A program made the translations under genes and the position numbers. From Bacteroides sp. (GTDB lineage: Bacteria; Bacteroidota; Bacteroidia; Bacteroidales; Bacteroidaceae), in the NCBI GenBank assembly GCA_019412865.1, contig DXOJ01000602.1:1-25848 (forward strand): a stretch of DNA of 25,848 bases, read 5' to 3'. Shown piece by piece: positions 3,006 to 20,926 of the stretch. Within the stretch, counting starts at the first letter, position 1; the number at the start of each line of letters is the position of its first letter. The notes under the pieces are model-generated. The model saw nothing but the letters and a program-made list of their open reading frames with translations, was not told the origin of the DNA and ran no database searches.

Positions 3006-3060
3006 AAAAAGATAATCGGAAGCAATCAGGATATGTCCTTTATTGCTTCCGATTATTTTA
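3006..3060. terminator. Bidirectional terminator between convergent genes
   Basis: A perfect 15-base inverted repeat, ATAATCGGAAGCAAT at 3012-3026 and its complement at 3042-3056, has an inner AGGA/TCCT pairing around a TATG loop. It is flanked by AAAAA on the left (3006-3010) and TTTTA on the right (3057-3060), so each strand ends in a U-run after the stem. It sits between the + strand gene ending at 2940 and the - strand gene ending at 3078, and would end both transcripts, including the long leftward operon. Confidence 0.9.
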
Positions 3061-3077: not shown

Positions 3078-5090
3078 TTATTTGTTGTATTTGATTGAGA
3101 TATTAGCAAGTCTAAGCGGCATGAAGCTGGATACCCCTGCCGGGAGTCTGACCGGTCGCAATCTGATGCAAATATTATCACGGTTCAATAAGGCATCCGG
3201 CAACTTAAAGTCATAGACTTTATAACCAGGAATGTTCTTCTCCGTCTGTCCACCTGCAGCCGTTCTATCAAACTGTCCCAGAATGGTAAACTCTGAATTA
3301 TCTACTTTAATCCATTCACCATTCATCGAATAAGCATATTCAACCACTGCAACAGGGCCACCTCCCCAACTTGCATTCATTTCAACCTGAAGAGACAAGG
3401 ATGTAGAAATACCTACTGTCGATATTTTGTCTACGTAGAAATATGAACTTGTAGACCACGGTTTACTATTAAAAGCACCGCCTCGCATACGACCATAGTA
3501 TCCATCGGTCGTGTTAAGGTTAACATCTCCTCTGAAATCATCCTGGAATCCCAGAATGTAGTCTGCATAGGTTTGCTGGAAATATTTATTTCCGTCTTTG
3601 CTAAGAAGAGCATTCGCCTGCGATGCCTCGCCACCCGTAGGATGGTAATCCGTAAAAGTAGAAGAGCCTATTTCTTTCCAATCGGGTACATTACAATCCC
3701 ATTCTACAAGCACAGAAGTGATCTCGTTTATATCACTGATGTTAATATCTTCTCTGTTAAGCGGAAGAATACATAACCGGCTTTCAGAGATGTCGAAATT
3801 TGTAAGTTTCACTTTCGCCACCATTCCTGTTATGCTTCCCGAACCTTTAGGAAGTGTTTCGTGAGCATAAGGAGCTTCAAACGCAGTAAGCATATATGTA
3901 TTAGAACCGTTTTTATCTCTTATACAGGTCGGATAGTATCTGTAATATGCAGGGAACTTTTCTACCCAATAGTTTTTATTAATCTTACGATCGGCAGCTC
4001 CCGGGTCAGTAGTCTTGAAATTAGTGAATGCACCTACCGGAGATGCAATCTCGACATCTTTCAGGGTCACAAGACTAAATACCATATTATCCGTAAGTTC
4101 AGCAATCGTTCTTTCAGGAATTGTGAAGGTAGAAAGTTCCGAGCTGATTACGTGGGCAGCAGTGATACCGCTAATCAGTCTATAAGTAAAGCTACCCTCT
4201 GATTCTTCTCTTATCATTCCATCTTTCAGACACAATGACACTTTGGCAAATTGTGCAAACGTAATTAAAGATTCGGACTCAAACACAACTGTCTCTCCTG
4301 CCTCATTCTGAATGACATAGCGATTGCTCGGGAAGTTCTTCGAAGTGCCATTGGCTACGATGATTCCTTCAACATATACATTGTTAGTAATTCCACCGAC
4401 AGCATAACCATGTACGGTTGGATAACTGACAAGTTCCGCATTCGCATATTCAGAATATGCTTGCGAGAGATTAATGGTAGCCGTGACCTTACGCTGGTAC
4501 TGATCGTCATAACTCAACACAATACTTCCTGTACGGGGTGATTGCGAATTTGTTTCCGTATTAAAATAAAGCTTTCCATCACTTATCCTATACTCCTGCA
4601 CCCAGTTCACCGTTGGCGTAATAACGATATCCGTTTCGGGCACATTGGTAGAGATTTCCATTTCATATTCACCTCCTTTAGTAAACAGCTCCATCTTATC
4701 ACTGGCAGGAACAATAAATGGATAACGGGATAATTGTTTTATCTTGATTACATCCGCAGTCTTACCATCTTTCGTAAACACACGAATATCACAGAAACGT
4801 TCGGAATCACTGATATTCTCATCATAAGTCACAGTGAAATAAGTTCTTGATGACTGGGCTCCACGTATATCCGTAGAGAACCAGGTTGATTCTACAAAAT
4901 CAATTCGCCACTCGGTATTGGACTTCACCTCCACCTGAACCGGATCACCTTCCGCCTGAAGAATAATCTCATTATTTGTTATTTCCAATATACCGGCTTC
5001 ATGTTCGTCAGAGCATGACGGAAACATTATGATTGCCATCACAGCCAGAAAAGCTGTCCAGACTATTGAATCTTTAATTTTCATGTTCAT
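3078..5090 (-). CDS. BACON / DUF5689 surface lipoprotein, last gene of locus B
   Basis: A 670-residue exported lipoprotein. The signal peptide ends at FPSC (Cys26) and is followed by acidic SDEHE, a composition known to favour surface display of Bacteroides lipoproteins. Residues about 33-121 and 124-211 look like two BACON domains (Ig-like, with conserved W near VKSNTEWRID and the closing strand IKIKQLS / TINLSQA). Residues about 215-455 fit DUF5689, with OB-fold-like strands VYVEGIIVANG and YVIQNEAGETVVF. The last 210 residues form another beta-rich domain with many aromatics and could bind ligand. No catalytic motif was seen. The start is ATG at 5090, which shares one base with the stop of the upstream gene (TGATG); a longer reading would need a TTG codon at 5093. 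Coupling to the metallo-beta-lactamase-fold lipoprotein suggests that the two act together at the cell surface. The DUF5689 call is from pattern memory. Confidence 0.85.
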   Translation of the reverse strand: MNMKIKDSIVWTAFLAVMAIIMFPSCSDEHEAGILEITNNEIILQAEGDPVQVEVKSNTEWRIDFVESTWFSTDIRGAQSSRTYFTVTYDENISDSERFCDIRVFTKDGKTADVIKIKQLSRYPFIVPASDKMELFTKGGEYEMEISTNVPETDIVITPTVNWVQEYRISDGKLYFNTETNSQSPRTGSIVLSYDDQYQRKVTATINLSQAYSEYANAELVSYPTVHGYAVGGITNNVYVEGIIVANGTSKNFPSNRYVIQNEAGETVVFESESLITFAQFAKVSLCLKDGMIREESEGSFTYRLISGITAAHVISSELSTFTIPERTIAELTDNMVFSLVTLKDVEIASPVGAFTNFKTTDPGAADRKINKNYWVEKFPAYYRYYPTCIRDKNGSNTYMLTAFEAPYAHETLPKGSGSITGMVAKVKLTNFDISESRLCILPLNREDINISDINEITSVLVEWDCNVPDWKEIGSSTFTDYHPTGGEASQANALLSKDGNKYFQQTYADYILGFQDDFRGDVNLNTTDGYYGRMRGGAFNSKPWSTSSYFYVDKISTVGISTSLSLQVEMNASWGGGPVAVVEYAYSMNGEWIKVDNSEFTILGQFDRTAAGGQTEKNIPGYKVYDFKLPDALLNRDNICIRLRPVRLPAGVSSFMPLRLANISIKYNK

Positions 5091-6358
5091 CAATTATTAG
5101 ATTTAATCTCACCTGTTTTATATAGTATCTCATAAGCTTCATTCCGATCATTTAATACAAAGATCTGAAAATTCTCTCCACCCGGATAAACACGCGTAAC
5201 AACATGTCCGGCAGGCTTTATCTTCAAGCCGTCTTCACCTAGTCTGCTCCTGTTACTGTCTACCATACCGGCAGCAAAAACCGACCGTTCACCAGGATAA
5301 AGAGTTTGAGACAGCATCCGGCTCAACGTTGCCGGTTGAGGGTGATAGTAATCCCATACGGGAATTACATAGACTTGTGGTTTCACTTGGGAAATGTAGG
5401 TATCGCACATAGCATCAGAATAAGCGTGATGATTGGCAACAACCACATCCGTCTCACCGAGCAATCTGGCTACCGGCGTTTCTATATCAAACCATTCCGG
5501 TGCTTTTTCTACGCCCAGAATATCTCCTGCGGAGAAATAATCAAAATTACCGTATGTGATACGAATTCCACAACTGCAACGGTTTTCGTTCAACTGTTCA
5601 CTTGAAGAGGCTGTAGAAGGCACAAGCTCTTTGGCTGTTGTTCCGCTACCTGTCCAAATTTTACCATTACCCACGATATTACGTACTTCGAATGTAGGAT
5701 AAGAGCCCGGATCTTTCAAGAGTTTGATCTGACTATTGCTTCCTATTACAAATCCCTCATTCTTTTTACCTTCCCTGTCACGAGCGGCAACATATAATTT
5801 ATAGTTTGAGATATGAGCACCAGAGACTTTAGCTGCTGTCGGATAATCATAAGTAGGATAACCACGATCTATCAAAGTGGAAATATTGAGAAGATTACCA
5901 ACATGAGTGATTCCGGTAAGTTTGTAATCCAGTCCTACTTTTTCGATTGCCAGTTTTCCATTCTGTCCGATATGGTCCGTATCAAAGTGAGTGAGCAAGG
6001 CATAATCAAGTGCTCCGTTATTTTTTAATGGCAATGAGAAATGTTTTATATATTGAGCAATCCATTCGGCAGGCCGCTTAGAATCATTAGGCACTGCTTT
6101 CATAATTTCCTGTGTGCCTGAATGTACTCCTAAATCTCCTGCATCCAATAACATGGTAGTCCCATCCGGAAAAATAAGATAGGCTGCATTACCTCTTCCG
6201 GTACTAATCTGATGAATATCCAAATAACCTGCCTGCCACTCCGGAAGGTATTCATACACTTTATCTACTGCATCATCAGGAAAAGGCTTTTCTTGTTGGC
6301 AACTTGCGAATGTAGGCAGCAACATGATGGCTCCTAAAAAAAATATCTTGCTATTCAT
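5090..6358 (-). CDS. Secreted ComEC-like metallo-beta-lactamase-fold lipoprotein
   Basis: A 422-residue lipoprotein (lipobox FASC, Cys20) with a full metallo-beta-lactamase fold of the ComEC/Rec2 type. Visible motifs in order are the first strand pair ISTGRGNAAYLIFPDGTTMLLDAGD (residues 51-75), the metal motif HFDTDHIG (His124, Asp126, Asp128, His129), NENRCSCGIRITYGNFDYFSAGD with Asp279, and VVVANHHAYSDA with His310/His311. The HxDxDH form instead of HxHxDH is normal for ComEC-like members. All expected metal ligands are present, so it is likely an active hydrolase facing outside or in the periplasm. Related domains cleave DNA or other phosphodiesters, but some family members act on esters or lactones, so the substrate is open. 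It follows SusD by 22 bases and couples to the BACON/DUF5689 gene, and it is the only enzyme candidate in locus B. Two extra cysteines (Cys261 and Cys263) near the third motif are notable. Confidence 0.88.
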   Translation of the reverse strand: MNSKIFFLGAIMLLPTFASCQQEKPFPDDAVDKVYEYLPEWQAGYLDIHQISTGRGNAAYLIFPDGTTMLLDAGDLGVHSGTQEIMKAVPNDSKRPAEWIAQYIKHFSLPLKNNGALDYALLTHFDTDHIGQNGKLAIEKVGLDYKLTGITHVGNLLNISTLIDRGYPTYDYPTAAKVSGAHISNYKLYVAARDREGKKNEGFVIGSNSQIKLLKDPGSYPTFEVRNIVGNGKIWTGSGTTAKELVPSTASSSEQLNENRCSCGIRITYGNFDYFSAGDILGVEKAPEWFDIETPVARLLGETDVVVANHHAYSDAMCDTYISQVKPQVYVIPVWDYYHPQPATLSRMLSQTLYPGERSVFAAGMVDSNRSRLGEDGLKIKPAGHVVTRVYPGGENFQIFVLNDRNEAYEILYKTGEIKSNN

Positions 6359-6380
6359 TATATTATTCTTTAATAGTTGA

Positions 6381-8132
6381 TTAATCGATTTGCTTCACAC
6401 TATAGATACCGGCTTCTTCTTTAGTCATTTCATTGCCGCCTCCGTATCCCGGATTTTGCTTCAAGACATTGCTGACAGAAATTGACTTTTCCGGAATAGG
6501 AAAAAGCTCATAATGATCGTCGTTAGTAGGTTTATGATCCCACCAAGAACCTGTTGTATACAACCCCCAACGACGAAGATCGGTACGACGACGCTGTTCA
6601 CCCAGAAACTCGACCATCCACTCATCAAGAATCCGGTACTTGTCGATATTCGTTTCGGTCACCGGATCAGGATCGGCTTTATTCTCGAAATTGCGTTTAC
6701 GCACTTCATTGAAAAGATTGGCTGCTTCTTTTTTATAGCCGCTTCTATATTTACATTCAGCAAGCATATAATAGATTTCAGCAAAACGAATAACCGGATA
6801 ATCCGGATTAAAAGCAATGGTTTTGTCGATATTGTCGGGAACCGGTAGTTTGCACAAACGTATTCCGGAATTCTCTTCCCCGGTACTTATATTGGAGGGA
6901 AGCTCATTCACTGAAGAATATTCTCCGTCTTTCACTTTCTTGAATTGTGCCACCTGATCGACAAATTCAAGAACCTCACCCGGATATTCGTACAGTCCCG
7001 TACACTTCACCTCTGTGCCACTTCTTGATGTACGCTGTAATTTTCCATAAAGGAACATTCCTTCGTATTTCCCATTCCCTTTATACAAGTACAATTTTTT
7101 ACGAAGATCTTTATTATTGAACTTGGCAAAAGGTCGCCCAAGCTTATCCGTATAGGGATCGCCATTGGGTTTAAGAGACGGCTGAAGATGCATACCATTA
7201 GTAGAAGAATAGCCGCTTAGATCAAAATAGTTCTTTGCATTATAATGATTATAGCGTTCGAACTGCCATTGAAACAAAGTGCCTTTTGCATATTGCGACT
7301 GAACAGACCACATTACTTCCTTAGATTTATTATTGTCGAAAGTGAAAGGACCGAACCAGTCTTCCTCCAATTCGTAATAACCGTATTTGCCATCTAATAG
7401 ATCCTGGCAGACCTGCGCACATTCAGCAAAACGGTTCTCTCCCATGTAGACTTCCGCATTAAAATATAACTGAGCAAGAAGGGCGGCGGCAGTTCCTTGA
7501 CGTAAATAGCCTTCTTCCAGCATATCTGCTCTTTTTTTCTCTAATTTGGGAATAGCGGCAAGCAACAGTTCTTCCACATAATTAAAGGTTTCGCGTGCAG
7601 TGGAACGTGGAACTTCCTCGGTAGTAGAGCGCCGGTAAATAGGCATACCCCCATAGAAATCAAGTCCCCGCAGATAAAAATAGGCAACCAATGTCTGAAG
7701 TTGCATCTGATGATCTGCTTTCAATTCTTCCGTCATGCCCAGTGATACATAATCCACACCGGATAAGTCTTCCTTACAAGCTAAAGCCATTGCCACTCCC
7801 ATGCCTACCCCACGCCAGGTTTCTTCGTTGTTGGGGTGAAGAGGTGTCCAGTCGTGATGCTGCAGTTGGGAATATCTGACATCATTGTAATGTATTCCTT
7901 TTTGTGTGACACACATCTCATCTGTTGTACATTCTTGAAGAATGGCACGGTCGAATCCGTGAAACCAACGCCAATGTGTGAAAGAGCGTACCAAGAAAGA
8001 ATAAACAGTTTCCTTAGACGTGAAATAAGTGTCCGGAGTGACTTCGGAATACCACTTCTCATCCAGATTTGTACAACCGGATGACACCAGAAGGGTGAGG
8101 AAGGAGATAATGATTAAAATATTTCGTCTCAT
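6381..8132 (-). CDS. SusD/RagB-family surface glycan- or nutrient-binding lipoprotein (locus B)
   Basis: A 583-residue SusD-type lipoprotein that would sit as the lid on the adjacent SusC channel. The signal peptide ends at VSSGC (Cys20), followed by the typical TNLDEKWYSEVTPDTYFTS opening in which the first helix packs against SusC. Helical TPR-like segments are visible (for example LQTLVAYFYLRGLDFYGGMPIYRRSTTEEVPRS near 150), and the C-terminal SusD signature FAEIYYMLAECKYRSGYKKEAANLFNEVRKRNF near 465-500 is followed by DEWMVEFLGEQRRRTDLRRWG. It is longer than many SusD proteins (about 500-550 residues), with additional residues in the middle. The start is ATG at 8132, 31 bases after the SusC stop. 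The ligand cannot be read from sequence. Confidence 0.95.
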   Translation of the reverse strand: MRRNILIIISFLTLLVSSGCTNLDEKWYSEVTPDTYFTSKETVYSFLVRSFTHWRWFHGFDRAILQECTTDEMCVTQKGIHYNDVRYSQLQHHDWTPLHPNNEETWRGVGMGVAMALACKEDLSGVDYVSLGMTEELKADHQMQLQTLVAYFYLRGLDFYGGMPIYRRSTTEEVPRSTARETFNYVEELLLAAIPKLEKKRADMLEEGYLRQGTAAALLAQLYFNAEVYMGENRFAECAQVCQDLLDGKYGYYELEEDWFGPFTFDNNKSKEVMWSVQSQYAKGTLFQWQFERYNHYNAKNYFDLSGYSSTNGMHLQPSLKPNGDPYTDKLGRPFAKFNNKDLRKKLYLYKGNGKYEGMFLYGKLQRTSRSGTEVKCTGLYEYPGEVLEFVDQVAQFKKVKDGEYSSVNELPSNISTGEENSGIRLCKLPVPDNIDKTIAFNPDYPVIRFAEIYYMLAECKYRSGYKKEAANLFNEVRKRNFENKADPDPVTETNIDKYRILDEWMVEFLGEQRRRTDLRRWGLYTTGSWWDHKPTNDDHYELFPIPEKSISVSNVLKQNPGYGGGNEMTKEEAGIYSVKQID

Positions 8133-8163
8133 ATCATTTTATTAGTTTATAGGTACTTTAATA

Positions 8164-11100
8164 TTAGAATTGGATTTTCATACCAACGGTATATCTACGA
8201 GTTTCAGGATAAATATTATTAAACCATTCATAACCAGGGTCCAGTCCGTTGACATTCACTTCCGGATTAAGTCCTGAATATTTCGTGAAACATGCCACAT
8301 TCCGGACGGTCAGGTAAAGATCAATCTTATCTATATATTTCTGCCACTTTTTCATGTTAAGAGAATATCCCAGACTAATGGCGTCTATCTTTAAGAAAGT
8401 GCCGTCCTCAAGCCAGTAATCGCAAAGCTGCTTTACTTCTTTGATGTGCCGGTTGTCAATGTACGCATTGCGAAGAACGTTCTGGCCTGCTACTTCAGAA
8501 AGTCCATAGTACATATTTATGGTATTAAACACGTCGAAATCGATCCAGCTACGCAGGTTGATACCTAAAGAGAGGTTCTTGTAAGTGAAGGTATGATCCC
8601 ATGATACCATCAATGCAGGAATAGCATTACCGATGTACCGCTTGTCATCATAGGTCTTCTTATCGCTAAGAATCACATTGTCGTTCTTATCATACAGAAG
8701 CCATCTTCCATTATCCGTGATACCGGCATATTTCCAGATATAATAGCTTCCGATCTTTGTTCCTGCTTCAATTCTTCCGGCTGATCCGTTCGTTCCCGGT
8801 GACGGGAATCCTACACGATCCTGGTAAGTATTATTCCCCCACAAAGAGGTAATTTTGGAAGAAGAATGGGATAGACGCATGGTAGTTGTCCAGTTAAAGT
8901 CTTTCGTTTTAACAGGCACTCCGCCAATCTCAAACTCCCATCCGGTATTCTCAAGATTACCATAATTCATGGTCGTTTTCTCGTAAACGGCGGGAGGATT
9001 GGGTACACTGATATTGTATAACATTCCGGAAACTCTTCTTTTATATATATCGAACTTTCCAAAAAGCCGGTTATTCAGAAACGCATAATCCAAACCGATG
9101 TTAAGCTCTGCTTTCTTTTCCCAATGCAAGTCATTATTGACATTACGAGCCGGTCCATAAGAAGTGATCCATGTACCGTTATAAGGCCACATTGAATTGG
9201 AGGAGTACATGGCTGTGGATGCTCCTGCAGAGAAATTGTTATTTCCCGTCACACCATAACCGACACGTACTTTGAGGTCATCAAGAAAACTGACATCACG
9301 CAGAAAGGCTTCATTGGATATACGCCATCCACCTGATACAGCCCAGAATGTTCCCCAGCGATGATTCTTTCCAAATTTGGAAGATCCCTCATGACGGACA
9401 CTTCCAGTAACCATATAACGATCTTTATAGCTATAATTCGCCCGACCAAAGAAGGAGATAAGACGTTCACGAGGATATTTGTGAGAAGACATAGCTGCTT
9501 TTCCATCAGAAAGCCAGCTGCCTGTTCCCATATCCCAAGCTCCTACTCCATCCACAGGGAAATCGAAGTTAGACATATCAAAGTTTTCAGAATTGTTTTC
9601 CCAATAGCTATATCCGGCCACCGCACTAACCGTATGGTCATCTGCAAAAACACGCATGAAATTAATGGTAGGTTCAAAAGAAACATTTACTGTTTTACTA
9701 TATCCGTGAAATCCCTTTCCTTTATAACTTCCATTCAAAGATGTTCTGTGTAATGCGGATACATAATGCGTCTGCTGATACTGGCGATCTTCCCATCCGA
9801 GAGTGGCTTGTGCCGAAAATCCGGCAGGCAGATTGAGCTTTACCGTAGCATCCGCCTTGAGCCATTTATCAACATTATCCGTCTGCTTGAGCATAACTTC
9901 CGCTAATGGATTGTAATATTCACTACCACCAACCAATACATTGTAGCCTGTTTCACTAGTACTATCATAAACATGTTCCGTTGGATTCATCTTCAATGCC
10001 ATGTCGAAACAGGAACTACTGCTCCGCTGATCCCGATGTGCTTCACGATATTCTGTATGTAAGCCTATTTCCAGCAAGTCATTGAGAAGATTAAAGTTTG
10101 CATTGATACGCCCCGAATAGTCTTTACGATTATCGCCTATCGCAATACCTTTCTGATCCTGTGCCATAATAGTGGCATATATTCTGGCTGTATGTCCCCC
10201 TCCCGAAAGGGTGACAACATGGCGCTGGGAAAGTGCTCCCTCATTTAAAAGTTCACCGTACCAATCGGTAGACGCTCCCAAATCTGTTCCTACACCGAAC
10301 CTCACGAAAGCATCGCGATCCAGGACCTGTGGTCTTCTGGAAACTTGTTCGGTGGACAGCTCGCCTGTATATGATAATGTGATAGGACCTTCTTTCGCTT
10401 TCTTGGTAGTCACGAGAATGACACCACCAGCTGCCCTTGTTCCGTAAATAGCACCTGCAGAGGCATCCTTCAAAACATCAATGGATTGAATATCTTCCTG
10501 ACTGATAGAACGCAAATCACCACCAGGAATTCCGTCTATCACAATCAAAGGGGAAGAAGAAGCATTGATGGAAGCTACCCCACGAAGCTGGAAACTAGCA
10601 GAGGCATTCGGACTGGAGGTCTCGGAAACATTCATACCGGAGATTTTTCCTTTCAGAGCAGTCGCAATGGTAGAGCCTCCCAATCCAGTCACTAAATCTT
10701 TTGAAGATATGGAAGTAATGGAGCTGGTCACAGCACGTTTCTCCATTGTTCCATAACCGATAACGACTACTTCATCCAGCAACTGATGATCTTCTTTTAA
10801 TACCAAAGACAAGCTTGTCCGATTTCCCACCTTTACTTCAAGAGACTGAAAACCGATATATGAAATCAGTAATACAGCATTTGACGCAACTGACAGGTTA
10901 AATTTTCCATCCAAATCAGACACTGTACCTTTCCCGGCCACTCCTTTCTCCTGAATACTGGCACCAATCACCGGATCTCCATTCGTATCTACAATCACTC
11001 CTTGTATCTTTTTCGAAGTTGCTTCCGTTTGCTCTTGTTTTACCGGTACGGGAACCAGAACGATATACCCTTTTTCTATCTTGTAAGTAAACCCCGTTCC

Positions 11101-11379
11101 CGCGAGCAACTTATCCAAAACAATAGAAAGTTTTTGTTTCTTAAAATCAACACTCAATGTCCGATTCACATCTATTTTAGTCCGACTATAAGTAATGCTT
11201 AATTGAGTCTGACTTTCAATAGCATCAAAAGCTTTCAACAAAGTTATGTTTTTTCCGGCAATAGTAATCAACTGATTCTGCCCAAAGATAGTACCCAAAG
11301 GGACTATAAAGAATAAGGTTAACAATAAAATACGCAAATTACTGGTATGTTTTATAGTAAAATAAGAATTAAAATTCAT
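8164..11379 (-). CDS. SusC/RagA-family TonB-dependent transporter with STN signalling domain (locus B)
   Basis: An outer-membrane TonB-dependent transporter of 1071 residues. In order: signal peptide to about residue 33 (IFG/Q), an STN domain (about 37-110, LITIAGKNITLLKAFDAIESQ to GYIVLVPV), a carboxypeptidase-regulatory-like beta-sandwich (124-196), a TonB-box/SusC motif LDEVVVIGYG (201-210), the plug (to about 330, with SIDVLKDASAGAIYGTRAAGGVILVTTK), then the barrel, ending in aromatic KIQF as is usual for outer-membrane barrels. The STN domain means it can signal to a FecR anti-sigma factor, and such a gene lies directly upstream. ATG at 11379 gives a good signal peptide; an upstream GTG at 11418 in frame would add 13 residues and is less likely. 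A hairpin separates it from fecR, so it may have its own sigma-dependent promoter in 11380-11457. It pairs with the next gene, SusD. Confidence 0.95.
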   Translation of the reverse strand: MNFNSYFTIKHTSNLRILLLTLFFIVPLGTIFGQNQLITIAGKNITLLKAFDAIESQTQLSITYSRTKIDVNRTLSVDFKKQKLSIVLDKLLAGTGFTYKIEKGYIVLVPVPVKQEQTEATSKKIQGVIVDTNGDPVIGASIQEKGVAGKGTVSDLDGKFNLSVASNAVLLISYIGFQSLEVKVGNRTSLSLVLKEDHQLLDEVVVIGYGTMEKRAVTSSITSISSKDLVTGLGGSTIATALKGKISGMNVSETSSPNASASFQLRGVASINASSSPLIVIDGIPGGDLRSISQEDIQSIDVLKDASAGAIYGTRAAGGVILVTTKKAKEGPITLSYTGELSTEQVSRRPQVLDRDAFVRFGVGTDLGASTDWYGELLNEGALSQRHVVTLSGGGHTARIYATIMAQDQKGIAIGDNRKDYSGRINANFNLLNDLLEIGLHTEYREAHRDQRSSSSCFDMALKMNPTEHVYDSTSETGYNVLVGGSEYYNPLAEVMLKQTDNVDKWLKADATVKLNLPAGFSAQATLGWEDRQYQQTHYVSALHRTSLNGSYKGKGFHGYSKTVNVSFEPTINFMRVFADDHTVSAVAGYSYWENNSENFDMSNFDFPVDGVGAWDMGTGSWLSDGKAAMSSHKYPRERLISFFGRANYSYKDRYMVTGSVRHEGSSKFGKNHRWGTFWAVSGGWRISNEAFLRDVSFLDDLKVRVGYGVTGNNNFSAGASTAMYSSNSMWPYNGTWITSYGPARNVNNDLHWEKKAELNIGLDYAFLNNRLFGKFDIYKRRVSGMLYNISVPNPPAVYEKTTMNYGNLENTGWEFEIGGVPVKTKDFNWTTTMRLSHSSSKITSLWGNNTYQDRVGFPSPGTNGSAGRIEAGTKIGSYYIWKYAGITDNGRWLLYDKNDNVILSDKKTYDDKRYIGNAIPALMVSWDHTFTYKNLSLGINLRSWIDFDVFNTINMYYGLSEVAGQNVLRNAYIDNRHIKEVKQLCDYWLEDGTFLKIDAISLGYSLNMKKWQKYIDKIDLYLTVRNVACFTKYSGLNPEVNVNGLDPGYEWFNNIYPETRRYTVGMKIQF

Positions 11380-11457
11380 ACTTTTGTATATTAAATGAAT
11401 ACTACATTTAAGGTTCACTATTTCCTAAAATTTTAAATGATAACGGTATTTATTTCG

Positions 11458-11488
11458 GGTTGGACAAAAGGATCAGTTTTGTCCAACC
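11458..11488. terminator. Perfect hairpin between fecR and susC
   Basis: Two perfect 12-base arms, GGTTGGACAAAA at 11458-11469 and its reverse complement at 11477-11488, enclose a 7-base loop. The repeat begins 3 bases after the fecR stop codon. Followed by TTTTTAT on the + strand, it is a classic terminator for rightward transcription. In the leftward (gene) direction it is preceded by an A-run and not followed by a clear U-run, so it may be a weak terminator, an attenuator or an RNA-processing element that lets the sigma/FecR pair and the transporter be expressed at different levels. Confidence 0.7.
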
Positions 11489-11491
11489 TTT

Positions 11492-12526
11492 TTATGGATG
11501 GGTACCTCCTTTCTTACTCTTATTCGCCGGTGAAGCAGCTGTCAGTATCACAACCTTATTGTCTGTGACCTTGCTTTCCATACCTCCGACGGTCATTGTT
11601 ACAATATGAATTGCTGCTTGAAGAGGTTCGCCCTTTCTAAGCTTAATGGTATATAAATCATTTGTGTATAAATGCGGTTCTGCCTTTATTTCTACATTAT
11701 AATGTCGTCCCAATGTGTTCAGAATATCCTCCAGATGGCAATCGACAAAATTCAATTCACCACGTGTCCAACCGGAAGCCATCATCACATCTATTTTTCG
11801 TTTTTCATAATTCTTAGTCAGGTGATTGTATTCAAGTTGTTCACCGGGAGTAAGAATAAAACAGCTGTCTGGTGCCAGCAGGTTATTGATTTGCACTTTT
11901 CCATTTTCAAGAGTTGTAGTCGTTTTCCTGTCTTCCGAATATGCCTGTATATTAAACTTCGTACCTAAAGCACGAACTGATAACAAAGATGTCTTGACAA
12001 TAAACGGATGTTTCTTATCCTTATGGACATCAAAATTCGCCTCTCCGGAAAGATAAACAGTGCGTGTATCGCCTCGAAAGCTTTTCGGATAAATGATACT
12101 GCTCTCCGAATTGATCTGTACCTTTGTCCCATCCGGCAAAGTCAATTCTCCCCGTTCACCCATGGGAACAATATATTCTACCAATTTGCAAGAATCAGTA
12201 TAATCATTTATATAATGCCACGATAATAGCACTGAAAATAAGGGGATTAATATCATAGAAGCAATGCGAAGAAGTGGTTTGATTTCCCAATGTGGTTTTA
12301 TTATCGGATTTGCAAGTCCCGCTTTACGCCGGACCTCATACCATGAACGCCGGGTGGCCTCATCAGGTTCAGCGATGATATTCATCCACTCTTCCTGTAT
12401 AGCTTCTTCTTTATCTTCTGCATCAGCAGGAGAAACCAGCCAACGCCAAAACTTCATCTGCAAGGAGTTTTGCAGGGGATGGCGAACAAAAAAATGTATT
12501 AGTTCTGATATGCTTTTCTTCTTCAT
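11492..12526 (-). CDS. FecR-family anti-sigma factor
   Basis: A 344-residue inner-membrane regulator that holds the ECF sigma factor until a signal comes from the STN domain of a TonB-dependent transporter. A cytoplasmic N-terminal part (1-84, with WRWL near 27 and WYEVRRKAG near 62) should bind the sigma factor. One membrane segment follows (about 86-105, IASMILIPLFSVLLSWHYI), then the periplasmic FecR domain (about 113-213, from KLVEYIVPMGERGELTLPDGTKV to TTTTLENGKVQI) and a DUF4974 domain (about 257-330, LNFVDCHLEDILNTLGRHYNVEIK). This is the standard Bacteroidota FecR layout. It lies 126 bases downstream of the sigma gene; that gap is AT-rich with an A-run and a CA repeat (about 12568-12576) but no clear promoter. 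ATG at 12526 is the only reasonable start. Confidence 0.95.
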   Translation of the reverse strand: MKKKSISELIHFFVRHPLQNSLQMKFWRWLVSPADAEDKEEAIQEEWMNIIAEPDEATRRSWYEVRRKAGLANPIIKPHWEIKPLLRIASMILIPLFSVLLSWHYINDYTDSCKLVEYIVPMGERGELTLPDGTKVQINSESSIIYPKSFRGDTRTVYLSGEANFDVHKDKKHPFIVKTSLLSVRALGTKFNIQAYSEDRKTTTTLENGKVQINNLLAPDSCFILTPGEQLEYNHLTKNYEKRKIDVMMASGWTRGELNFVDCHLEDILNTLGRHYNVEIKAEPHLYTNDLYTIKLRKGEPLQAAIHIVTMTVGGMESKVTDNKVVILTAASPANKSKKGGTHP

Positions 12527-12652
12527 GATTTTATCCGTTTATTAATAAGATGCACGAGATAGAATACACACACAGTCTAAAAGCTATTTTTTCTACTTTT
12601 TTTGAGAAAGGAGAATAAAAGAAGAGTTTTTGTCAATAGGAAGTGGTTTTAT

Positions 12653-13216
12653 TTAGAAAAGATAAAAGTGCTTCAGCATCTTGCGGATATCAGCCAATGC
12701 TTGTGTGAGATGGTTTTCTACAGTCCGTTTGTTTATTGCAAGCAGTTGCGCTATCTCATCATTGTTTTTACCTTCTTTACGGCTCATCTCATAAATTCTT
12801 TTTCGTTGGGCGGGCATTTGCTCTACCGTATGCTGTATCAACAACAGTAATTCTTCGGCAAACATATTTTCTTCGATGTTTCCCGCACCCTCATTCTGCT
12901 GACGGGAAAGATTCTCCTGTTGCTTTTCTCCATATTCATTCACCAAAAGTATATGTCGTAAATGCTGGTACACAGCATTCCGGGAAGTCCGATAAAGGTA
13001 GGCATTCAGATTTTCGATTTTTGCCATCTCCTCACGCTTCTGCCATAGTTTGAGGAGAATATCTTGTGCAAAGTCCTCTGCCGTTATATCATCCTGAAGT
13101 AAACCGGATATAAAACGTTTCACCCTCGGGAAATAACGCATAAACAAAACCTCAAAAGCTTTCTCATCTCCTCGTGACAAAGCTCTCAACAGTATTTGCT
13201 CTTCTGTAAATTCCAT
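12653..13216 (-). CDS. ECF-type RNA polymerase sigma factor (FecI-like)
   Basis: A 187-residue sigma-70 family extracytoplasmic-function factor. Region 2 is visible at residues about 10-75 (RALSRGDEKAFEVLFMRYF to TAEDFAQDILLKLWQKR) and region 4 with its helix-turn-helix at about 130-182 (MPAQRKRIYEMSRKEGKNNDEIAQLL, then KRTVENHLTQALADIRK). The linker between them is Gln/Glu-rich. ATG at 13216 was chosen because it gives the family length and begins exactly at region 1/2. A longer frame to 13336 adds a 40-residue leader with no family match, and a good promoter (13250-13281) lies inside that leader, so the longer start would not be transcribed. It is followed by its FecR partner and presumably directs transcription of the SusC/SusD genes. 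Whether it also serves locus A is unknown. Confidence 0.95.
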   Translation of the reverse strand: MEFTEEQILLRALSRGDEKAFEVLFMRYFPRVKRFISGLLQDDITAEDFAQDILLKLWQKREEMAKIENLNAYLYRTSRNAVYQHLRHILLVNEYGEKQQENLSRQQNEGAGNIEENMFAEELLLLIQHTVEQMPAQRKRIYEMSRKEGKNNDEIAQLLAINKRTVENHLTQALADIRKMLKHFYLF

Positions 13217-13385: not shown

Positions 13386-15521
13386 TTAGTTCTTCAATGT
13401 CTGTGCCTTACTCTTCTCTGCCCAGGCTTTCTCCATCCCATAGAAGTTTATTTCCTGTCCTGCAGGCTTCCCATCCAGCTCCGCCTGTTTCTGCTCAAAG
13501 AAGGCTTTCCAACGCTGATAATACAAGTCTTTCAAAAGTCCACTCCATTCCCGATGCGAATAATCATGTAGTCCGCCTTGATTGGCAGCAATGCTATCTC
13601 CCCAGACTGTGATTAATGCGGAAGCATTCCATTCGTACAATCGCTTTTCTTCTTCTGTAGTTCCCAGAGAACGAGCTGCATTCAACCAAGAGGAAACGGA
13701 AAATTCTTTCCGGGTAGATAACAAACGATCTTGCGCCAATATCAAGTCCAGGAATTGCTGTGTTTGTTTGCGGAAATCCTCTTTGTCCTTTCGGTCATAG
13801 CTCTGTGATATTTCTTCAAGTAACACATTTCCTTTATCGGCATTACTCTGACGTACGATGTCTACCAAGTCATACTCAAAATTGTTGTTTCCTTTATACT
13901 GGTCGGCAACGGAAGTAAATAGCCGGGCTGCCTTTGCAGTAGAATCGGGAGCATAAAATAGTTTGGAATATCCCCAAGTAGAAGTTCTATCCAGATGGAA
14001 ACCCGGACGGGCACATAACAAAGACTCAATGGTTCCTTCACCCTGATAATCTTTCGGAGCATTGTAAACGGTGTGTTCCAATGCACGCCAAGCCTCCATT
14101 ATTTCCGGTGAAACTTCTCTGCCATAACGAGCTTTCAAGTAAGTCTGCAACCATTCATCGGAAGAAAAGCGTTCTTCACGCCAAGGAAGTTCGTAAAGGA
14201 GTTCGAACATCACCAGATTATTCTCTATGCCCTCCGGGGTTGCTCCTACTCCATGCAACATTTTCCCATTAGTGTGTGCACAAGCATCATAATACCCGTT
14301 CACCAGCTGATTCATCCGGCCGTGCAAACCAACATTACCTCCAAAATTCAGTAACATACAATAAAGCCAGTCGTGTTTGCCAAAGCCCTTTTCCCGATAC
14401 CACATGGAATCCGGATCTCCCCATTGGGGACGTTTCTCACTATATAAATCTAAAACGAGCAAATCTCCCTGATTAAGAGAAGCAATCATTTCTTCCCGAG
14501 GATTCGCCTGCCAGGCCTGAATGATCCAAACAGCCTTCGGATTGGCTTTCTTCATAGCTGCCATAATGGAAGCACCGGTTTTCGCCAAGTCTACTCCTTC
14601 CGTGTTACCTCCCTCATGAAATGGATCCATGCTGTAATAGTTGGCTTTTCCATAGAGTTTCTCCAATTCCTCATAATACATAGCGGCAAAAGAATCGAAG
14701 TGTTCATCTTCCGTAGAAAGGAAAGCCGGACGGGGGAATCCGCACCATTTACCGGGATCAGCAATCTGATAACCTAGCTTTTCACCAATGTTACGGGGAA
14801 CCATTCCAGCATATCCGGGGAATACTGGTTCAATACCCAACTCCCGCATACGGGCTACGATCTTCTTCTGAAGCGCTTCTTGTTGCTGATACCAGCTATC
14901 GGGATTCGGTCCACCCCAACCCTCGAGATTATTCATTTGCCACCAAGCCATAAAGGCCGGGCCGGAAATAAATTCATTGACTTCTTCTGTTGTGTATCCC
15001 AAACGTTTCAGCAAATTGTACCAGACCACCTCCATTCCAGTGATGCTCAAAGGCATATTGATGCCATGCATTGCCATCCAGTCTATTTCTTTTTCCCAAC
15101 GCTCCCAATCCCAGAAAGCCATGGAATAAGAATAGGTGCAATAGTTCAGATAATATCTGTTCTGCATGGATGTCTCCTTACGTATCTTTTCTTGTGGAAG
15201 CGGTAGTATTTCCGGTAACTTCTGCGAAAGATTATTCCAGGAAAGATGAATACCGGCTACATATTTCAGATACCAGTTCAACCCCGTAGCCAGAGACAAA
15301 TCAGAGTTTCCGGTTATCAGCACTTTACCCTCTTCAGAAGATATTTCAAAATAATCTCTTAACGGATTGTTTTCATCAGCAATCATCCGAAAAAGAATAC
15401 GATCTTTCGAAGTACCCTCCGTCACACGATCTGCCAATGCATTGACAGGCGACTGTTCGGTTTGGCAGCTACATATCCATGTAGCCCCCAATAATAGAAT
15501 GAATAAAAGACGTGTATACAT
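13386..15521 (-). CDS. GH89 family alpha-N-acetylglucosaminidase, lipoprotein
   Basis: A 711-residue exo-glycosidase related to human NAGLU, removing terminal alpha-linked GlcNAc. The signal peptide ends at ICSC (Cys19), so it is lipid-anchored. A small N-terminal domain (about 25-115) carries DLSLATGLNWYLKYVAGIHLSW. The catalytic barrel (about 120-440) has the family motifs YYLNYCTYSYSMAFWDWERWEKEIDWMAMHGINMPL, GPAFMAWWQMNNLEGWGGPNP and VFPGYAGMVP. By comparison with NAGLU, Glu303 in DPFHEGG is the expected acid/base and Glu430 in GVGATPEGIENN the expected nucleophile; both are present. A C-terminal helical domain follows. Length is normal for bacterial GH89 without extra carbohydrate-binding modules. 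It is the last gene of locus A, 69 bases after GH35. Substrates of the family are heparan sulfate ends and GlcNAc-alpha-1,4-Gal caps of mucin; the neighbouring beta-galactosidase favours the latter. Confidence 0.95.
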   Translation of the reverse strand: MYTRLLFILLLGATWICSCQTEQSPVNALADRVTEGTSKDRILFRMIADENNPLRDYFEISSEEGKVLITGNSDLSLATGLNWYLKYVAGIHLSWNNLSQKLPEILPLPQEKIRKETSMQNRYYLNYCTYSYSMAFWDWERWEKEIDWMAMHGINMPLSITGMEVVWYNLLKRLGYTTEEVNEFISGPAFMAWWQMNNLEGWGGPNPDSWYQQQEALQKKIVARMRELGIEPVFPGYAGMVPRNIGEKLGYQIADPGKWCGFPRPAFLSTEDEHFDSFAAMYYEELEKLYGKANYYSMDPFHEGGNTEGVDLAKTGASIMAAMKKANPKAVWIIQAWQANPREEMIASLNQGDLLVLDLYSEKRPQWGDPDSMWYREKGFGKHDWLYCMLLNFGGNVGLHGRMNQLVNGYYDACAHTNGKMLHGVGATPEGIENNLVMFELLYELPWREERFSSDEWLQTYLKARYGREVSPEIMEAWRALEHTVYNAPKDYQGEGTIESLLCARPGFHLDRTSTWGYSKLFYAPDSTAKAARLFTSVADQYKGNNNFEYDLVDIVRQSNADKGNVLLEEISQSYDRKDKEDFRKQTQQFLDLILAQDRLLSTRKEFSVSSWLNAARSLGTTEEEKRLYEWNASALITVWGDSIAANQGGLHDYSHREWSGLLKDLYYQRWKAFFEQKQAELDGKPAGQEINFYGMEKAWAEKSKAQTLKN

Positions 15522-15540
15522 AGCTTTATTTACAATTTAT

Positions 15541-15548
15541 CAAATATA
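15541..15548 (-). promoter_or_regulatory. Possible internal -7 element before the GH89 gene
   Basis: TATATTTG on the - strand (15548 to 15541) matches the Bacteroides -7 consensus and is identical to the elements before the sigma gene. It would give a start near 15534, about 13 bases before the GH89 ATG at 15521. No TTTG-like -33 sequence lies at the usual distance and the region is AT-rich, so a chance match is possible. Confidence 0.3.
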
Positions 15549-15590
15549 ATAATTAAGAGTCGCATTTTATATCTATTTACTACGTTTTAT

Positions 15591-17924
15591 TCAATGAAAT
15601 AAGAAGAATTGTGGACGGCCATATACATTTATATCTTTCACCTTTCCTGACAAGAATGAACCTTTACGAACTTTCACGCGAAAAGCCGAAACCTTATAAA
15701 TTTCTTTCAGATCTATAATAACCCGGTGAGGATGATTAGGTTCCATAGCCGCATCCGTATGCCAAAAAGAAGAGATATCTCCATCAAACAGGTTTTCCGC
15801 TATTCCCAAGTTCTTATCAGCTTGTTCGCTGCTTACATAAACGACTTCCCATTTAGTTTTGTCAATCGGCTGTCCCTTATCATCTATCAGTTCCACTTCC
15901 GAAATGCAGGCCTGATTATCCTCTGTGTAGGAAGACAGAGTCTCTATACAGAAATGGCGGAGAGTAGTCGCAACCGGTAAATCGAATGACTGCCACTCAT
16001 TAGTCTCCTGCAAAGTAGTTTTTAATGCAAGATCACCGTCTTCCAGAATCGGAGTGCCTGCCACTGCACGACGCTGGCCCTTCTGATAATTCTTATCAAT
16101 ACCTAGACTATCCAGAATGGGTTGATTCAATCCTTGCAAAACACGCTTACCCGTATCTTCCATTTCAAACACTACAATTTCGTTTTCTCCCTCTTTCAGC
16201 CATGGAGCGGGCAGATAGAGTGTTTGTTGAGGGCCGATATTCCAGAAACGTCCCAGAGATTTGCCATTTACCCAGACAGCACCTTTGCCCCATTGACTCA
16301 TATCCACAAAGCAGTCACCTTTCTTCTCCACCGTAAACGTTCCTTTATGGAAAGCGGGAACGCCTTTGATGGTTTCGCCAAACTCCATTTCCGAAACTTT
16401 TTCTTTATACAGAGGCAATGGAGTAATAGACCATCCGGTCAACTTTTCATTTCCCCACAAAACTTGGCTGGTGATACCTTTCCGGTTAAACAGTATATCG
16501 GGGCCGTAGTTGACGCGTCCGGTATTTTCTACCAGAATCTCCAGTGTGGCAGGTGTCTTCGGCACATTCAAGGTCACACTGTTCTGATTGTAACGACGAT
16601 CCAGACTGGCTACCTGCTTACCATCAATGAGGATCACAGCATAGTCACGCAAATCCTGTATGACAAGTTTCTGTTTTCCCGCTTTTTGAAGTGTGGTCTG
16701 ATAATGAATATATCCGAAATCAACTCCCAAATCCTCCATCGACAGCACATTTTCAGACTGGGTAGTCTGATGAAATGCAGTCCTTAATGGAGCACTTTCC
16801 TTTAATTCGACTGTTGCAAAAGTGGTAGTCGGATTATCTGCCGGAACTTCCGGCAGTACTGTTCCCGCAGGCAGGTATTTCTGAATCACTTCCCTGAATG
16901 CATGATATTTGGGATAACAATTTCCCCATTCACCCAAGGGAGCGTCATAATCATAGCTTGTGGGCTGGGGCTGATAACCGCCTCCGGTATTGGCTCCATT
17001 GGTATACTCAAAGTTTGTACCACCGTGGAACATATACATGCTGACAGAAACACCGTGGCTCAACATCCAGTCCAGCTGTTCGGCGGGACGTTCATAAGCA
17101 ACAGAGGAATGTCGTCTGCCCCACTCATCAAACCAAGCCGGATAAAACTCCGCAACAAAATAGGGACCGCCCTTTTGGTACTTATCTACCACTTTGAATA
17201 TATCTTCACCAAACACTCCGTTCAATGTAGGCAGTGCGCCCTCAACATGTCCGGCTTCCACCTGTCCACCACCGTCACAGGTAAATAGCGGAACATTGAA
17301 TCCTGCTTCTTTAATCATATCGCGGATAGCGGCAAGATACTCTTTATCCGCTGCATACGATCCATATTCATTCTCCACCTGCACCATAATAATATTACCT
17401 CCATTATTGATGGTCAAAGGAGACAGTTGTTTGCCAAGTTCTTTGATATATCGTTCACAATAGGACAGGAAACGCGGATCTTTACTGCGATAAGTCATAT
17501 CCTTTTCTTTCAGCAGCCACGACGGGTAACCTCCGAAATCCCATTCTGCACAGACATACGGACCGGGACGAAGAATCACATACAGTCCCTCTTCCTGTGC
17601 CGTACGGATAAATTCCGCAATATCAGCCTGTCCACTAAAGTCAAACTCTCCCGGCTGACGTTCATGGAAGTTCCAGAAAACGTAGGCAGATACCGTATTC
17701 AGTCCCATCGCACGCGCTCTCTTCAGGCGGTCACGCCAATACTCGTGCGGAATGCGGGGATAGTGCATTTCTCCACAAATCAACTGGATATCCTTTCCCT
17801 CGATAGTAAAAGTACCATTTCCTATTCTAACCTGTTCCTTGGGGGAGGAACAGGAAGAAATTAGAAATGATACTATGATGTTAAGTATAACAAGTACGGT
17901 TTTATGATTTTTGTTCATCTTCAT
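15591..17924 (-). CDS. GH35 family beta-galactosidase with C-terminal F5/8C domain, lipoprotein
   Basis: A 777-residue secreted lipoprotein (LISSC, Cys25) that should remove terminal beta-galactose by a retaining mechanism. The TIM barrel spans about residues 38-355, with the opening GEMHYPRIPHEYWRDRLKRARAMGLNTV typical of GH35. Glu186 in QVENEYGSY is the expected acid/base and Glu259 in VAEFYPAWFDEWG the expected nucleophile, both intact; FHGGTNFEYTNGAN near 300 is another family signature. Two beta-sandwich regions follow (about 365-615, including WVNGKSLGRFWNIGPQ near 551). The C-terminal part (about 640-770) reads as an F5/8 type C (discoidin-like) domain with AENLFDGDISSFWHTD and VIIDLKEIYKVSAFRV, probably sugar-binding. 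It lies 82 bases after the DUF4874/4832 gene, with a hairpin between them, and before GH89. Removal of beta-Gal exposed by GH89 is a natural division of labour but is inferred. Confidence 0.95.
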   Translation of the reverse strand: MKMNKNHKTVLVILNIIVSFLISSCSSPKEQVRIGNGTFTIEGKDIQLICGEMHYPRIPHEYWRDRLKRARAMGLNTVSAYVFWNFHERQPGEFDFSGQADIAEFIRTAQEEGLYVILRPGPYVCAEWDFGGYPSWLLKEKDMTYRSKDPRFLSYCERYIKELGKQLSPLTINNGGNIIMVQVENEYGSYAADKEYLAAIRDMIKEAGFNVPLFTCDGGGQVEAGHVEGALPTLNGVFGEDIFKVVDKYQKGGPYFVAEFYPAWFDEWGRRHSSVAYERPAEQLDWMLSHGVSVSMYMFHGGTNFEYTNGANTGGGYQPQPTSYDYDAPLGEWGNCYPKYHAFREVIQKYLPAGTVLPEVPADNPTTTFATVELKESAPLRTAFHQTTQSENVLSMEDLGVDFGYIHYQTTLQKAGKQKLVIQDLRDYAVILIDGKQVASLDRRYNQNSVTLNVPKTPATLEILVENTGRVNYGPDILFNRKGITSQVLWGNEKLTGWSITPLPLYKEKVSEMEFGETIKGVPAFHKGTFTVEKKGDCFVDMSQWGKGAVWVNGKSLGRFWNIGPQQTLYLPAPWLKEGENEIVVFEMEDTGKRVLQGLNQPILDSLGIDKNYQKGQRRAVAGTPILEDGDLALKTTLQETNEWQSFDLPVATTLRHFCIETLSSYTEDNQACISEVELIDDKGQPIDKTKWEVVYVSSEQADKNLGIAENLFDGDISSFWHTDAAMEPNHPHRVIIDLKEIYKVSAFRVKVRKGSFLSGKVKDINVYGRPQFFLFH

Positions 17925-17944
17925 TCAAATAAGATGTAAGTTTC

Positions 17945-17994
17945 GAATACTCCGACCGCAACATGAGATCTGTTCTATACGGTCGGAAGTATTC
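17945..17994 (-). repeat. Intra-operon hairpin between the DUF4874/4832 and GH35 genes
   Basis: An inverted repeat with arms GAATACTCCGACCG (17945-17958) and its complement (17980-17994, with one bulged base) encloses a 21-base loop. The stem is about 14 base pairs, GC-rich near the loop. It fills most of the short gap between the two genes and has no U-run after it in the leftward direction, so it looks more like an RNA stability or processing element than a simple terminator. It would separate the binding/uptake genes from the two glycosidase genes. Confidence 0.65.
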
Positions 17995-18006
17995 ATCAAT
18001 TTATTT

Positions 18007-19572: not shown

Positions 19573-19600
19573 GATTGATATACTTTTAATTTTCACCCGA

Positions 19601-20911
19601 TTAATTTTCATTGTAGATAAAACGTGCAGGAGCACCGGTTGTCCAAGAACTCCACAATGTTGCCCCTCCATCATGAAGAATACATTGATGAGACATATCA
19701 TCAGTGACCAACAGATAACAGTACGGTCCGGTATGATTAGTGATTGCATCACCGCTCCATTGACCGGAAGCACACAAATTGAATTTCCAGTCGTTCAAAT
19801 GCGCCTGTCCTTTTACTGATTCATAATATTCAGGATCTTTCAATACATTCCATTGACCTTCGGCAGTTCCGGCTTCTGCAAACAAATTCTTATATTCCTG
19901 TATGGTCGGCAAACGCCATCCCTTAGGTGCTATCTTATCACGAATATCGTAATGATAATGCACTCCATAGGCTTTCACTCTACCTTCTCCGAGCGATGCA
20001 GGTGTCTTTTTGAAATTATTCGCTTCAATATCTGTACCATCAGCATATTTAGTTGCGCGCAGGTTATCTGCCAACCAAACCAATGATGTTTTGTCACTAT
20101 AAAATATACGAACAACACGATAAGTAATCTTTTCATCTCCACGAACATCGATGAAGCGCATCATTTCTGTCATATTCAGTACTCCGGAAGAACGTGACAC
20201 CCATTGCCCATCATCAGTCTTCACATTCCAATACACAGAATTGGAAGTCCAACGTTTGATAGAAAGTTTATCGAGCAGTGCCTGAAGTTCTTCATGAGTC
20301 AATGATGATTTACCATTCACAACTTCCACACTATGTTCGGCAACCGTCTGTTTCATTTCAGGATCCAGTGAGAAACAAAGCGAGTACGAGGTAGATTCAG
20401 GCCATTCCTGGGTATCCCATTCAAACTGCACAGCAGTTTCCGGGGTATTTTCAGCCAAAGAAATCTTAGTCAAATCTTCCGGCTGCACTAATTTGCTAGT
20501 CATACGTTTCACCCGAATGGTGCGTGCTTCCGAAGCTGCTGCGGTTATATTACCAGTTTCTTTGACCGTCCAATACAATACCGCTTCCTGCCCCGCTTTA
20601 ATTCCCAATTGAGAAAAACTCTGATCGGCAGTCAGTGCAGATATCGCAACAGAAGTCGATTTTCCTGCATCAATTATTACCGGTTCTTTGAATTTCCTGT
20701 CAGTACAAATAAGCAGCTTTGCTCCATTTTCCAGAGGTTTCTCCCAAGAGAAACTATATTTCTCAATCGATAAATCATTCAAATCAATGATCGCTCCATC
20801 TTGAGGCGCGCTCAAGTAAATATCCGACATCGGAATGATTACATTGTACTTGTCTTCCTTACATCCGGCAAGCAACAAGATTCCTAATAGACTATATAAT
20901 AAATGTTTCAT
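19601..20911 (-). CDS. SusE-like surface lipoprotein with C-terminal FISUMP domain
   Basis: A 436-residue lipoprotein (LLAGC, Cys17). Two Ig-like SusE-type domains are seen: about residues 31-135 (DIYLSAPQDGAIIDLND, then YSFSWEKPLENGAKLLICTD) and about 145-248 (AVQFEWDTQEWPESTSYSLCFSLDP, YWNVKTDDGQWVS). The last part (about 252-434) reads as a FISUMP (Fibrobacter succinogenes major paralogous) domain: DKTSLVWLADNLRATKYADGTDI, APKGWRLPTIQEYKNLFAEAG, and a final aromatic-rich segment ending ARFIYNEN. SusE-type proteins bind glycan at the surface next to SusC/SusD; FISUMP is a C-type-lectin-like extracellular domain of unclear function. It lies 15 bases after SusD and 28 bases before the DUF4874/4832 start, so it belongs to the same transcript. 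Confidence 0.88.
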   Translation of the reverse strand: MKHLLYSLLGILLLAGCKEDKYNVIIPMSDIYLSAPQDGAIIDLNDLSIEKYSFSWEKPLENGAKLLICTDRKFKEPVIIDAGKSTSVAISALTADQSFSQLGIKAGQEAVLYWTVKETGNITAAASEARTIRVKRMTSKLVQPEDLTKISLAENTPETAVQFEWDTQEWPESTSYSLCFSLDPEMKQTVAEHSVEVVNGKSSLTHEELQALLDKLSIKRWTSNSVYWNVKTDDGQWVSRSSGVLNMTEMMRFIDVRGDEKITYRVVRIFYSDKTSLVWLADNLRATKYADGTDIEANNFKKTPASLGEGRVKAYGVHYHYDIRDKIAPKGWRLPTIQEYKNLFAEAGTAEGQWNVLKDPEYYESVKGQAHLNDWKFNLCASGQWSGDAITNHTGPYCYLLVTDDMSHQCILHDGGATLWSSWTTGAPARFIYNEN

Positions 20912-20926
20912 AATGCTATCTATTTT

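What the first reader, a model, noticed from the sequence alone, without database searches (positions are those of the whole stretch)
3078..13216. SusCD uptake locus whose only enzyme candidate is a ComEC-like metallo-beta-lactamase-fold lipoprotein
Seen: sigma, FecR, STN-SusC, SusD, then an MBL-fold lipoprotein with intact HFDTDH, SAGD and NHH motifs, coupled to a BACON/DUF5689 lipoprotein. No glycosidase, lyase, sulfatase or peptidase is visible in this locus. Known: ComEC-type MBL domains are associated with DNA handling and nuclease activity, and SusCD systems can import non-glycan cargo. Inference: this may be an uptake system for nucleic acid or another phosphodiester or ester substrate in which the MBL protein cuts at the surface and the DUF5689 protein (OB-fold-like) binds. 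This is the best candidate for an undescribed system in the window.
Basis: partly seen in the sequence, partly recalled or inferred. Interest (0 to 1): 0.72.

Follow-up and report, generated by a model that had tools for sequence, protein, structure and literature searches.

The report
Uptake locus with predicted surface phosphodiesterase
A gut Bacteroides carries a self-regulated outer-membrane uptake operon whose only enzyme belongs to a little-studied family built like the DNA-cutting part of ComEC and a phosphocholine-removing enzyme, so it probably feeds the cell a phosphorus-containing molecule rather than an ordinary sugar polymer, although its real cargo is still unknown.

The parts
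3078..5090 (-). DUF5689 lipoprotein: signal peptide and Cys26, BACON (model 34-122), DUF5689 (207-427), C-terminal jelly-roll-like domain (457-670); probable cargo-binding surface protein
5090..6358 (-). MBL-fold lipoprotein (422 aa), predicted metal-dependent phosphodiesterase; metal motif H124xD126xD128H129, D279, H310
6381..8132 (-). SusD-like lipoprotein
   Evidence: PF07980 106 bits; PDB SusD relatives
8164..11418 (-). SusC-like TonB-dependent receptor with N-terminal STN signalling domain
   Evidence: TIGR04056 706 bits; PF07660 STN
11492..12526 (-). FecR-type anti-sigma factor
   Evidence: PF04773, PF16344
12653..13216 (-). ECF sigma factor
   Evidence: TIGR02985 143.8 bits over cut-off 126.4; ATG at 13216-13214
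3013..3057 (.). strong hairpin between convergent genes, probable terminator of the operon
   Evidence: -25.3 kcal/mol, z -8.37; sequence
11457..11489 (.). 12-bp hairpin in the FecR-SusC gap; role unknown
   Evidence: -16.4 kcal/mol, z -5.45

Best explanation
This is a TonB-powered SusC-SusD uptake operon for a phosphorus-ester (phosphodiester-containing) cargo such as a glycerophosphodiester, teichoic-acid-like or phosphonate ester; nucleic acid is rated apart below. The MBL lipoprotein is a metal-dependent phosphodiesterase of the ComEC-MBL/Pce kind that cuts the cargo at the outer membrane, on the outside or in the periplasm. The BACON/DUF5689 lipoprotein is a surface binding protein. SusC and SusD import the piece, and the STN domain of SusC with FecR and the ECF sigma turns the operon on when cargo passes. 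Shown: gene content, coupling, predicted fold, complete metal motif, conserved unit, neighbours of relatives. Inferred: enzymatic activity, location, cargo class, induction.
Against: 0 of 3 window-type loci (L007, L088, L089) rings with any of the 12 phosphorus seeds. The window's MBL clade (29 rows, 100/100) is sister to, not inside, the phosphorus-linked clade (18 of 23 rows labelled, 85/81, open fork), and its neighbours are known only for the window type and L060. Relatives also occur with carbohydrate enzymes: MBL-AXE1 fusion near GH31 (L009), GH31, GH3 and GH89 (L094), two GH3 and a 3-keto-disaccharide hydrolase (L060), GH43/GH32-type (L062), sulfatase and SASA esterase in the phosphorus-positive L097. 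L043 showed neither. The seeds were taken mostly from MBL loci, many loci come from sister species, and 22 of the 49 loci (21 of the 48 with a called MBL ORF) are not barrel-linked. Fold alone does not fix substrate.
Confidence: 0.47

Rival explanations
1. Glycan PUL: the operon is the downstream half of the GH89/GH35 locus (13386-25843), or a glycan PUL of its own, and the MBL removes a decoration (lactone, ester, sulfate or phosphate) from a host glycan.
For: GH89 and GH35 lie upstream on the same strand, 169 nt from sigma, also in G001 (L007). L094 holds an MBL relative with GH31, GH3 and GH89 in one locus. BACON and jelly-roll parts resemble domains of carbohydrate enzymes and glycan-binding proteins.
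Against: L088 and L089 keep SusC-SusD-MBL-DUF5689 at the same place without a GH89 or GH35 seed hit (L005, ten kb upstream of the MBL, likewise) and with another sigma/FecR pair. The operon has its own sigma, FecR and STN-SusC. 20 of 27 barrel-linked family members have phosphorus-ester neighbours.
Confidence: 0.26
2. Nucleic-acid feeding or uptake: the MBL is a surface nuclease like the ComEC MBL domain and DUF5689 binds DNA or RNA; SusC-SusD import the fragments.
For: Closest fold is the ComEC nuclease domain; motif II is HxDxDH as in ComEC, while 58 of 73 rows have HxHxDH as in Pce. A relative, L066, lies in an operon FecR-barrel-MBL-adenosine-deaminase-like-DeoD (TIGR00107 309 bits over 232)-nucleoside permease (TIGR00889 471 over 446). 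[quoted passage not shown] Canonical DUF5689 loci: TonB receptor in 15 of 20, EEP phosphoesterase gene in 10 of 20, EEP in 0 of 40 control loci.
Against: Nucleoside genes of the L066 kind rang in L066 alone of the 49 MBL loci; the other phosphorus-linked relatives point to glycerophosphodiesters, phosphonates or phosphatases. The window DUF5689 protein is only 15-20% identical to 14 canonical ones (A3). The near relative G001 has a separate canonical TonB-DUF5689-EEP locus (L160). No nucleotidase or nucleoside transporter is in the window operon.
Confidence: 0.21
3. The MBL is not catalytic in uptake but a binding or housekeeping protein that merely travels with the SusCD pair.
For: Three paralogs have lost the metal ligands (L045, L049, L053); the Tat-type relatives have no SusC seed hit within six ORFs.
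Against: The window protein keeps every ligand, and MBL and SusD relatives share exact contig lengths in 7 cases against about 0.5 expected.
Confidence: 0.06

Closest known systems
Phosphate utilisation systems (PusCD/PUS loci) of Flavobacterium (PMC8115612; passages and sections 16 and 19 read)
   Same: SusCD pair with phosphoesterases and, in some, phosphonate genes instead of CAZymes
   Different: PUS loci are defined by induction on phosphate depletion and known PDE/PME genes; the term metallo-beta-lactamase does not occur in that paper's main text (figures and supplements not seen); the window has STN-SusC, FecR and sigma control and an MBL as its only enzyme
ComEC/Rec2 MBL domain
   Different: stand-alone lipoprotein of 422 aa, no Competence (PF03772) or DUF4131 match, SusCD instead of competence context
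Pneumococcal Pce/CbpE teichoic acid phosphorylcholine esterase
   Different: Asp for the second motif II His, no choline-binding repeats found, Gram-negative SusCD context
DUF5689-barrel pair for natural transformation (RA0C_RS04920/RS04915, PMC8459023)
   Same: DUF5689 protein made beside an outer-membrane TonB-type transporter; canonical loci often have an EEP phosphoesterase gene nearby
   Different: partner here is a SusC-SusD pair, the enzyme an MBL, extra BACON domain, no DUF5017 match
MBL-GDPD-GlpT SusCD operons in other Bacteroidales (this survey: L042, L095, L099, L101, L103; L063 in another order)
   Same: sigma-FecR-SusC-SusD-MBL order
   Different: they add GDPD and a GlpT-like carrier; the window adds DUF5689 instead

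Membership tests
Glycan PUL | adjacent SusC-SusD pair | tested here: met
Glycan PUL | CAZyme in the same conserved unit | tested here: not met
   none found in 3078-13216; upstream GH89/GH35 give no seed hit in L005, L088 and L089, but are present in the window and L007
PUS (PusCD) locus | SusCD with phosphoesterase or phosphonate gene | tested here: inconclusive
   only a predicted phosphodiesterase, the MBL; known phosphoesterase genes in relatives but not in window-type loci
PUS (PusCD) locus | induction by phosphate depletion | not testable with these tools
   needs transcriptomics
ComEC/Rec2 | MBL domain with HxDxDH | tested here: met
ComEC/Rec2 | membrane Competence domain | tested here: not met
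   no PF03772; TIGR00361 17.3 of 190 bits
Pce/CbpE | MBL phosphorylcholine esterase fold | tested here: met
Pce/CbpE | HxHxDH and choline-binding repeats | tested here: not met
   Asp126 in place of His; no choline-binding Pfam hit
DUF5689 transformation pair | DUF5689 domain | tested here: met
   56.4 bits, cut-off 28.6
DUF5689 transformation pair | partner barrel of the RS04915 type | tested here: inconclusive
   the partner is a SusC/RagA protein over the TIGR04056 cut-off; the RS04915 sequence itself was not compared
DUF5689 transformation pair | DNA binding or role in transformation | not testable with these tools
   needs experiment
OB-fold nucleic-acid binders | OB fold of the DUF5689 part | tested here: inconclusive
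   PF01336 in 2 of 21 members, best E 0.0036; fold search barely covered that part

The most novel reading that the evidence does not exclude
A SusCD-type outer-membrane importer of nucleic acid: a ComEC-like MBL lipoprotein cuts DNA or RNA at the surface, a DUF5689 lipoprotein of the kind needed for DNA uptake in Riemerella captures it, and SusC-SusD bring fragments in under STN/FecR/sigma control, a nutritional counterpart of competence assembled from competence-like parts. A relative in a nucleoside-salvage operon (L066) shows that the enzyme family does meet nucleoside catabolism.
Probability: 0.21. Interest if true: 0.85.

Novelty: new variant of a known kind. Interest (0 to 1): 0.53.

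Why it matters
It points to an enzyme family, MBL proteins of the ComEC/Pce kind, that recurs in SusCD loci of Bacteroidota beside glycerophosphodiester, phosphonate, phosphatase and once nucleoside genes; the listings of the paper searches made here showed no description of it. If right, gut Bacteroides take up phosphodiester nutrients (teichoic acids, phospholipid head groups, phosphonates or nucleic acids) by SusCD systems, and a set of SusCD loci without CAZymes gains a testable substrate class. It also joins the unexplained DUF5689 transformation proteins to a nutrient-uptake setting.

Tried and rejected
Own assembly: not held; G001 used as nearest kin. The genus is Bacteroides by inference: G1299 has the contig length of B. 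xylanisolvens XB1A (5976145); the species of the window was not established. 'secA' for a gene beyond the operon is named by eye.

Contexts of the window's own MBL clade: the family search around G458 (3 genomes), the genus search around G487 (5), and the families of G048 (1) and G060 (2) gave no further member besides the centres G458 and G487 themselves. Plasmids gave one distant relative in Parabacteroides distasonis without SusCD among its annotated neighbours; phages one weak partial hit; viral contigs two weak hits, L165 and L166, not followed.

A ComEC competence gene was rejected (no membrane domain). A secreted beta-lactamase was not pursued (blaAHM 23 of 590 bits). DUF5689 as a specific marker of MBL loci was rejected: it occurs in 60 of 118 sampled Bacteroidota genomes. 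The fold matches of the DUF5689 protein to Eph receptors and cadherins were set aside as common beta arrangements. Promoter-like hits were below the shuffle mean (18 against 29.7) and not used. My notebook gave 11 of 20 DUF5689 loci with EEP; the table shows 10 of 20.

Rows dropped or limited: L005 is the same place as L088 and was not counted twice; L059 gave no MBL ORF with my caller (48 of 49 loci did); for the tree, MBL rows were cut to their first 520 residues, and 24 of the 120 listed homologs were used. Control loci: 40 of the listed SusD places, picked by eye at steps down a list that is ranked by score and cut short, one MBL-linked place skipped. Not every neighbour gene was scanned for families; some are named by similarity to a scanned one or by eye. 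DUF5689 loci: 20 of the places listed, mostly the strongest.

For that fact I moved nucleic acid from 0.17 to 0.21, the best explanation from 0.50 to 0.47 and the glycan rival from 0.27 to 0.26.
Full report
What is there. On the minus strand the operon runs sigma (13216-12653), FecR (12526-11492), SusC with an STN domain (11418-8164), SusD (8132-6381), MBL lipoprotein (6358-5090) and BACON/DUF5689 lipoprotein (5090-3078). Gaps are 126, 73, 31 and 22 nt, and the last pair overlaps as TGATG. A strong hairpin (-25.3 kcal/mol, z -8.37) separates it from the convergent genes. GH89 and GH35 genes of another SusCD locus lie just upstream on the same strand.

Unit. In the last two the sigma is divergent, sigma and FecR are only distantly similar (66-67 and 98-101 bits, against 2132-2149 for SusC, 1336-1340 for SusD, 935-939 for MBL and 1427-1440 for DUF5689), and GH89 and GH35 seeds find nothing in the stretches read (L005, L088, L089); L007 (G001) has both. 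The MBL family rings in 16 of 158 genomes of the genus, 14 of 399 of the family, 7 of 393 of the order and 7 of 395 of the phylum; the samples share G001. In the protein database, MBL and SusD relatives share exact longest-contig lengths in 7 cases (0.5 expected by jittered lengths), MBL and DUF5689 in 4 (0.15 expected), and two lengths are shared by all three. This is circumstantial evidence that they lie on the same contigs.

Neighbours of relatives. I read 49 loci of the MBL family, 48 with a called MBL ORF. In 25 a SusC seed hit lies within six ORFs of the MBL; in two more (L064, L066) another outer-membrane barrel (PF25183) lies next to or near it. Twenty of these 27 have phosphorus-ester genes. 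(a) GDPD (PF03009 with DUF4996) and a GlpT/PgtP-like carrier: L042, L063, L095, L099, L101, L103; L093 has GDPD-like genes; L090 has an MBL-GDPD fusion and the carrier. (b) PhoA-type alkaline phosphatase and a GDPD: L096, L097, L098, L100 (L097 and in part L096 scanned). (c) Phosphonate genes: Neptunitalea L006 with PbfA, PhnX-like and TIGR03364, L065 alike, L068 with PhnX-like, TIGR03364-like and a phosphodiesterase. (d) His_Phos_2: L010, L091, L092, with a mannitol dehydrogenase in L010. (e) GDPD in L064 and L067. L066 instead reads FecR-barrel-MBL-adenosine-deaminase-like-DeoD-nucleoside permease-fructose-6-phosphate-aldolase type, the only one of the 49 with these nucleoside genes. The other six are the three window-type loci, L043 without such genes, and L009 and L094 with glycosidases. 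With the same 12 phosphorus seeds 2 of 40 control SusD loci rang, a PhoA and a calcineurin-like gene.

Results against. The window-type loci hold none of these genes. In a tree of 73 rows the window's clade (29 rows, 100/100) is sister to the phosphorus-linked clade (18 of its 23 rows, support 85/81), so the cargo is carried over from relatives of 31-38% identity in the alignment (L010, L006). L060, the one member of the window's broader clade outside the window type with known neighbours, lies beside two GH3 genes and a 3-keto-disaccharide hydrolase. L097, counted for phosphorus, also has a sulfatase and a sialate-esterase-type gene.

Reading. SusCD with phosphoesterases instead of CAZymes is known from the PUS loci of Flavobacterium (PMC8115612, passages and sections 16 and 19). 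The window fits that kind with a different enzyme, a different accessory protein and STN/FecR/sigma control. I give 0.47 to a phosphodiester-type cargo other than nucleic acid cut by the MBL, 0.26 to a glycan PUL, 0.21 to nucleic acid and 0.06 to a non-catalytic MBL. That surface-exposed Bacteroides lipoproteins often carry acidic residues after the cysteine (CSDEHEA in DUF5689, CQQEK in MBL) is recalled, not tested.

Noticed in passing
L066:5105-15706: Operon sigma-FecR-barrel-MBL-adenosine-deaminase-like-DeoD-nucleoside permease-aldolase: an MBL relative in a nucleoside-salvage setting.
   Followed up: partly
window 13386-25843 (-): A second SusCD locus upstream: SusC, SusD, SusE/Fib_succ_major, DUF4874/DUF4832, GH35, GH89. 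The ORFs at 18007-19773 and 19601-20911 overlap, so the DUF4832 start is probably further inside.
   Followed up: partly
L090:5849-7879: Natural fusion of MBL with GDPD-DUF4996.
   Followed up: partly
L009:10874-13399: Fusion of an MBL relative with an acetyl xylan esterase (AXE1) domain, near an FAD oxidoreductase and GH31.
   Followed up: partly
L045, L049, L053: Degenerate MBL paralogs that lost the metal ligands of motif II and the HH motif.
   Followed up: no
L160:3347-7991: The near relative G001 also has the canonical TonB receptor-DUF5689-EEP locus of the transformation type.
   Followed up: partly
L158:2423-11213: SusC-SusD-DUF5689-calcineurin phosphoesterase-GDPD operon, a PUS-like locus with DUF5689.
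   Followed up: partly
L060:8508-10571: MBL relative with a C-terminal secretion-system sorting tail (PF18962) beside GH3 genes.
   Followed up: partly
window 11457-11489: 12-bp hairpin between FecR and SusC, z -5.45; possible attenuator or control element.
   Followed up: no
L091, L092, L010 (458-461 aa MBL): SusCD loci with MBL, FAD_oxidored, His_Phos_2 and, in L010 as scanned, DUF6772 and mannitol dehydrogenase; looks like polyol-phosphate use (sugar-kinase-like gene by eye).
   Followed up: partly
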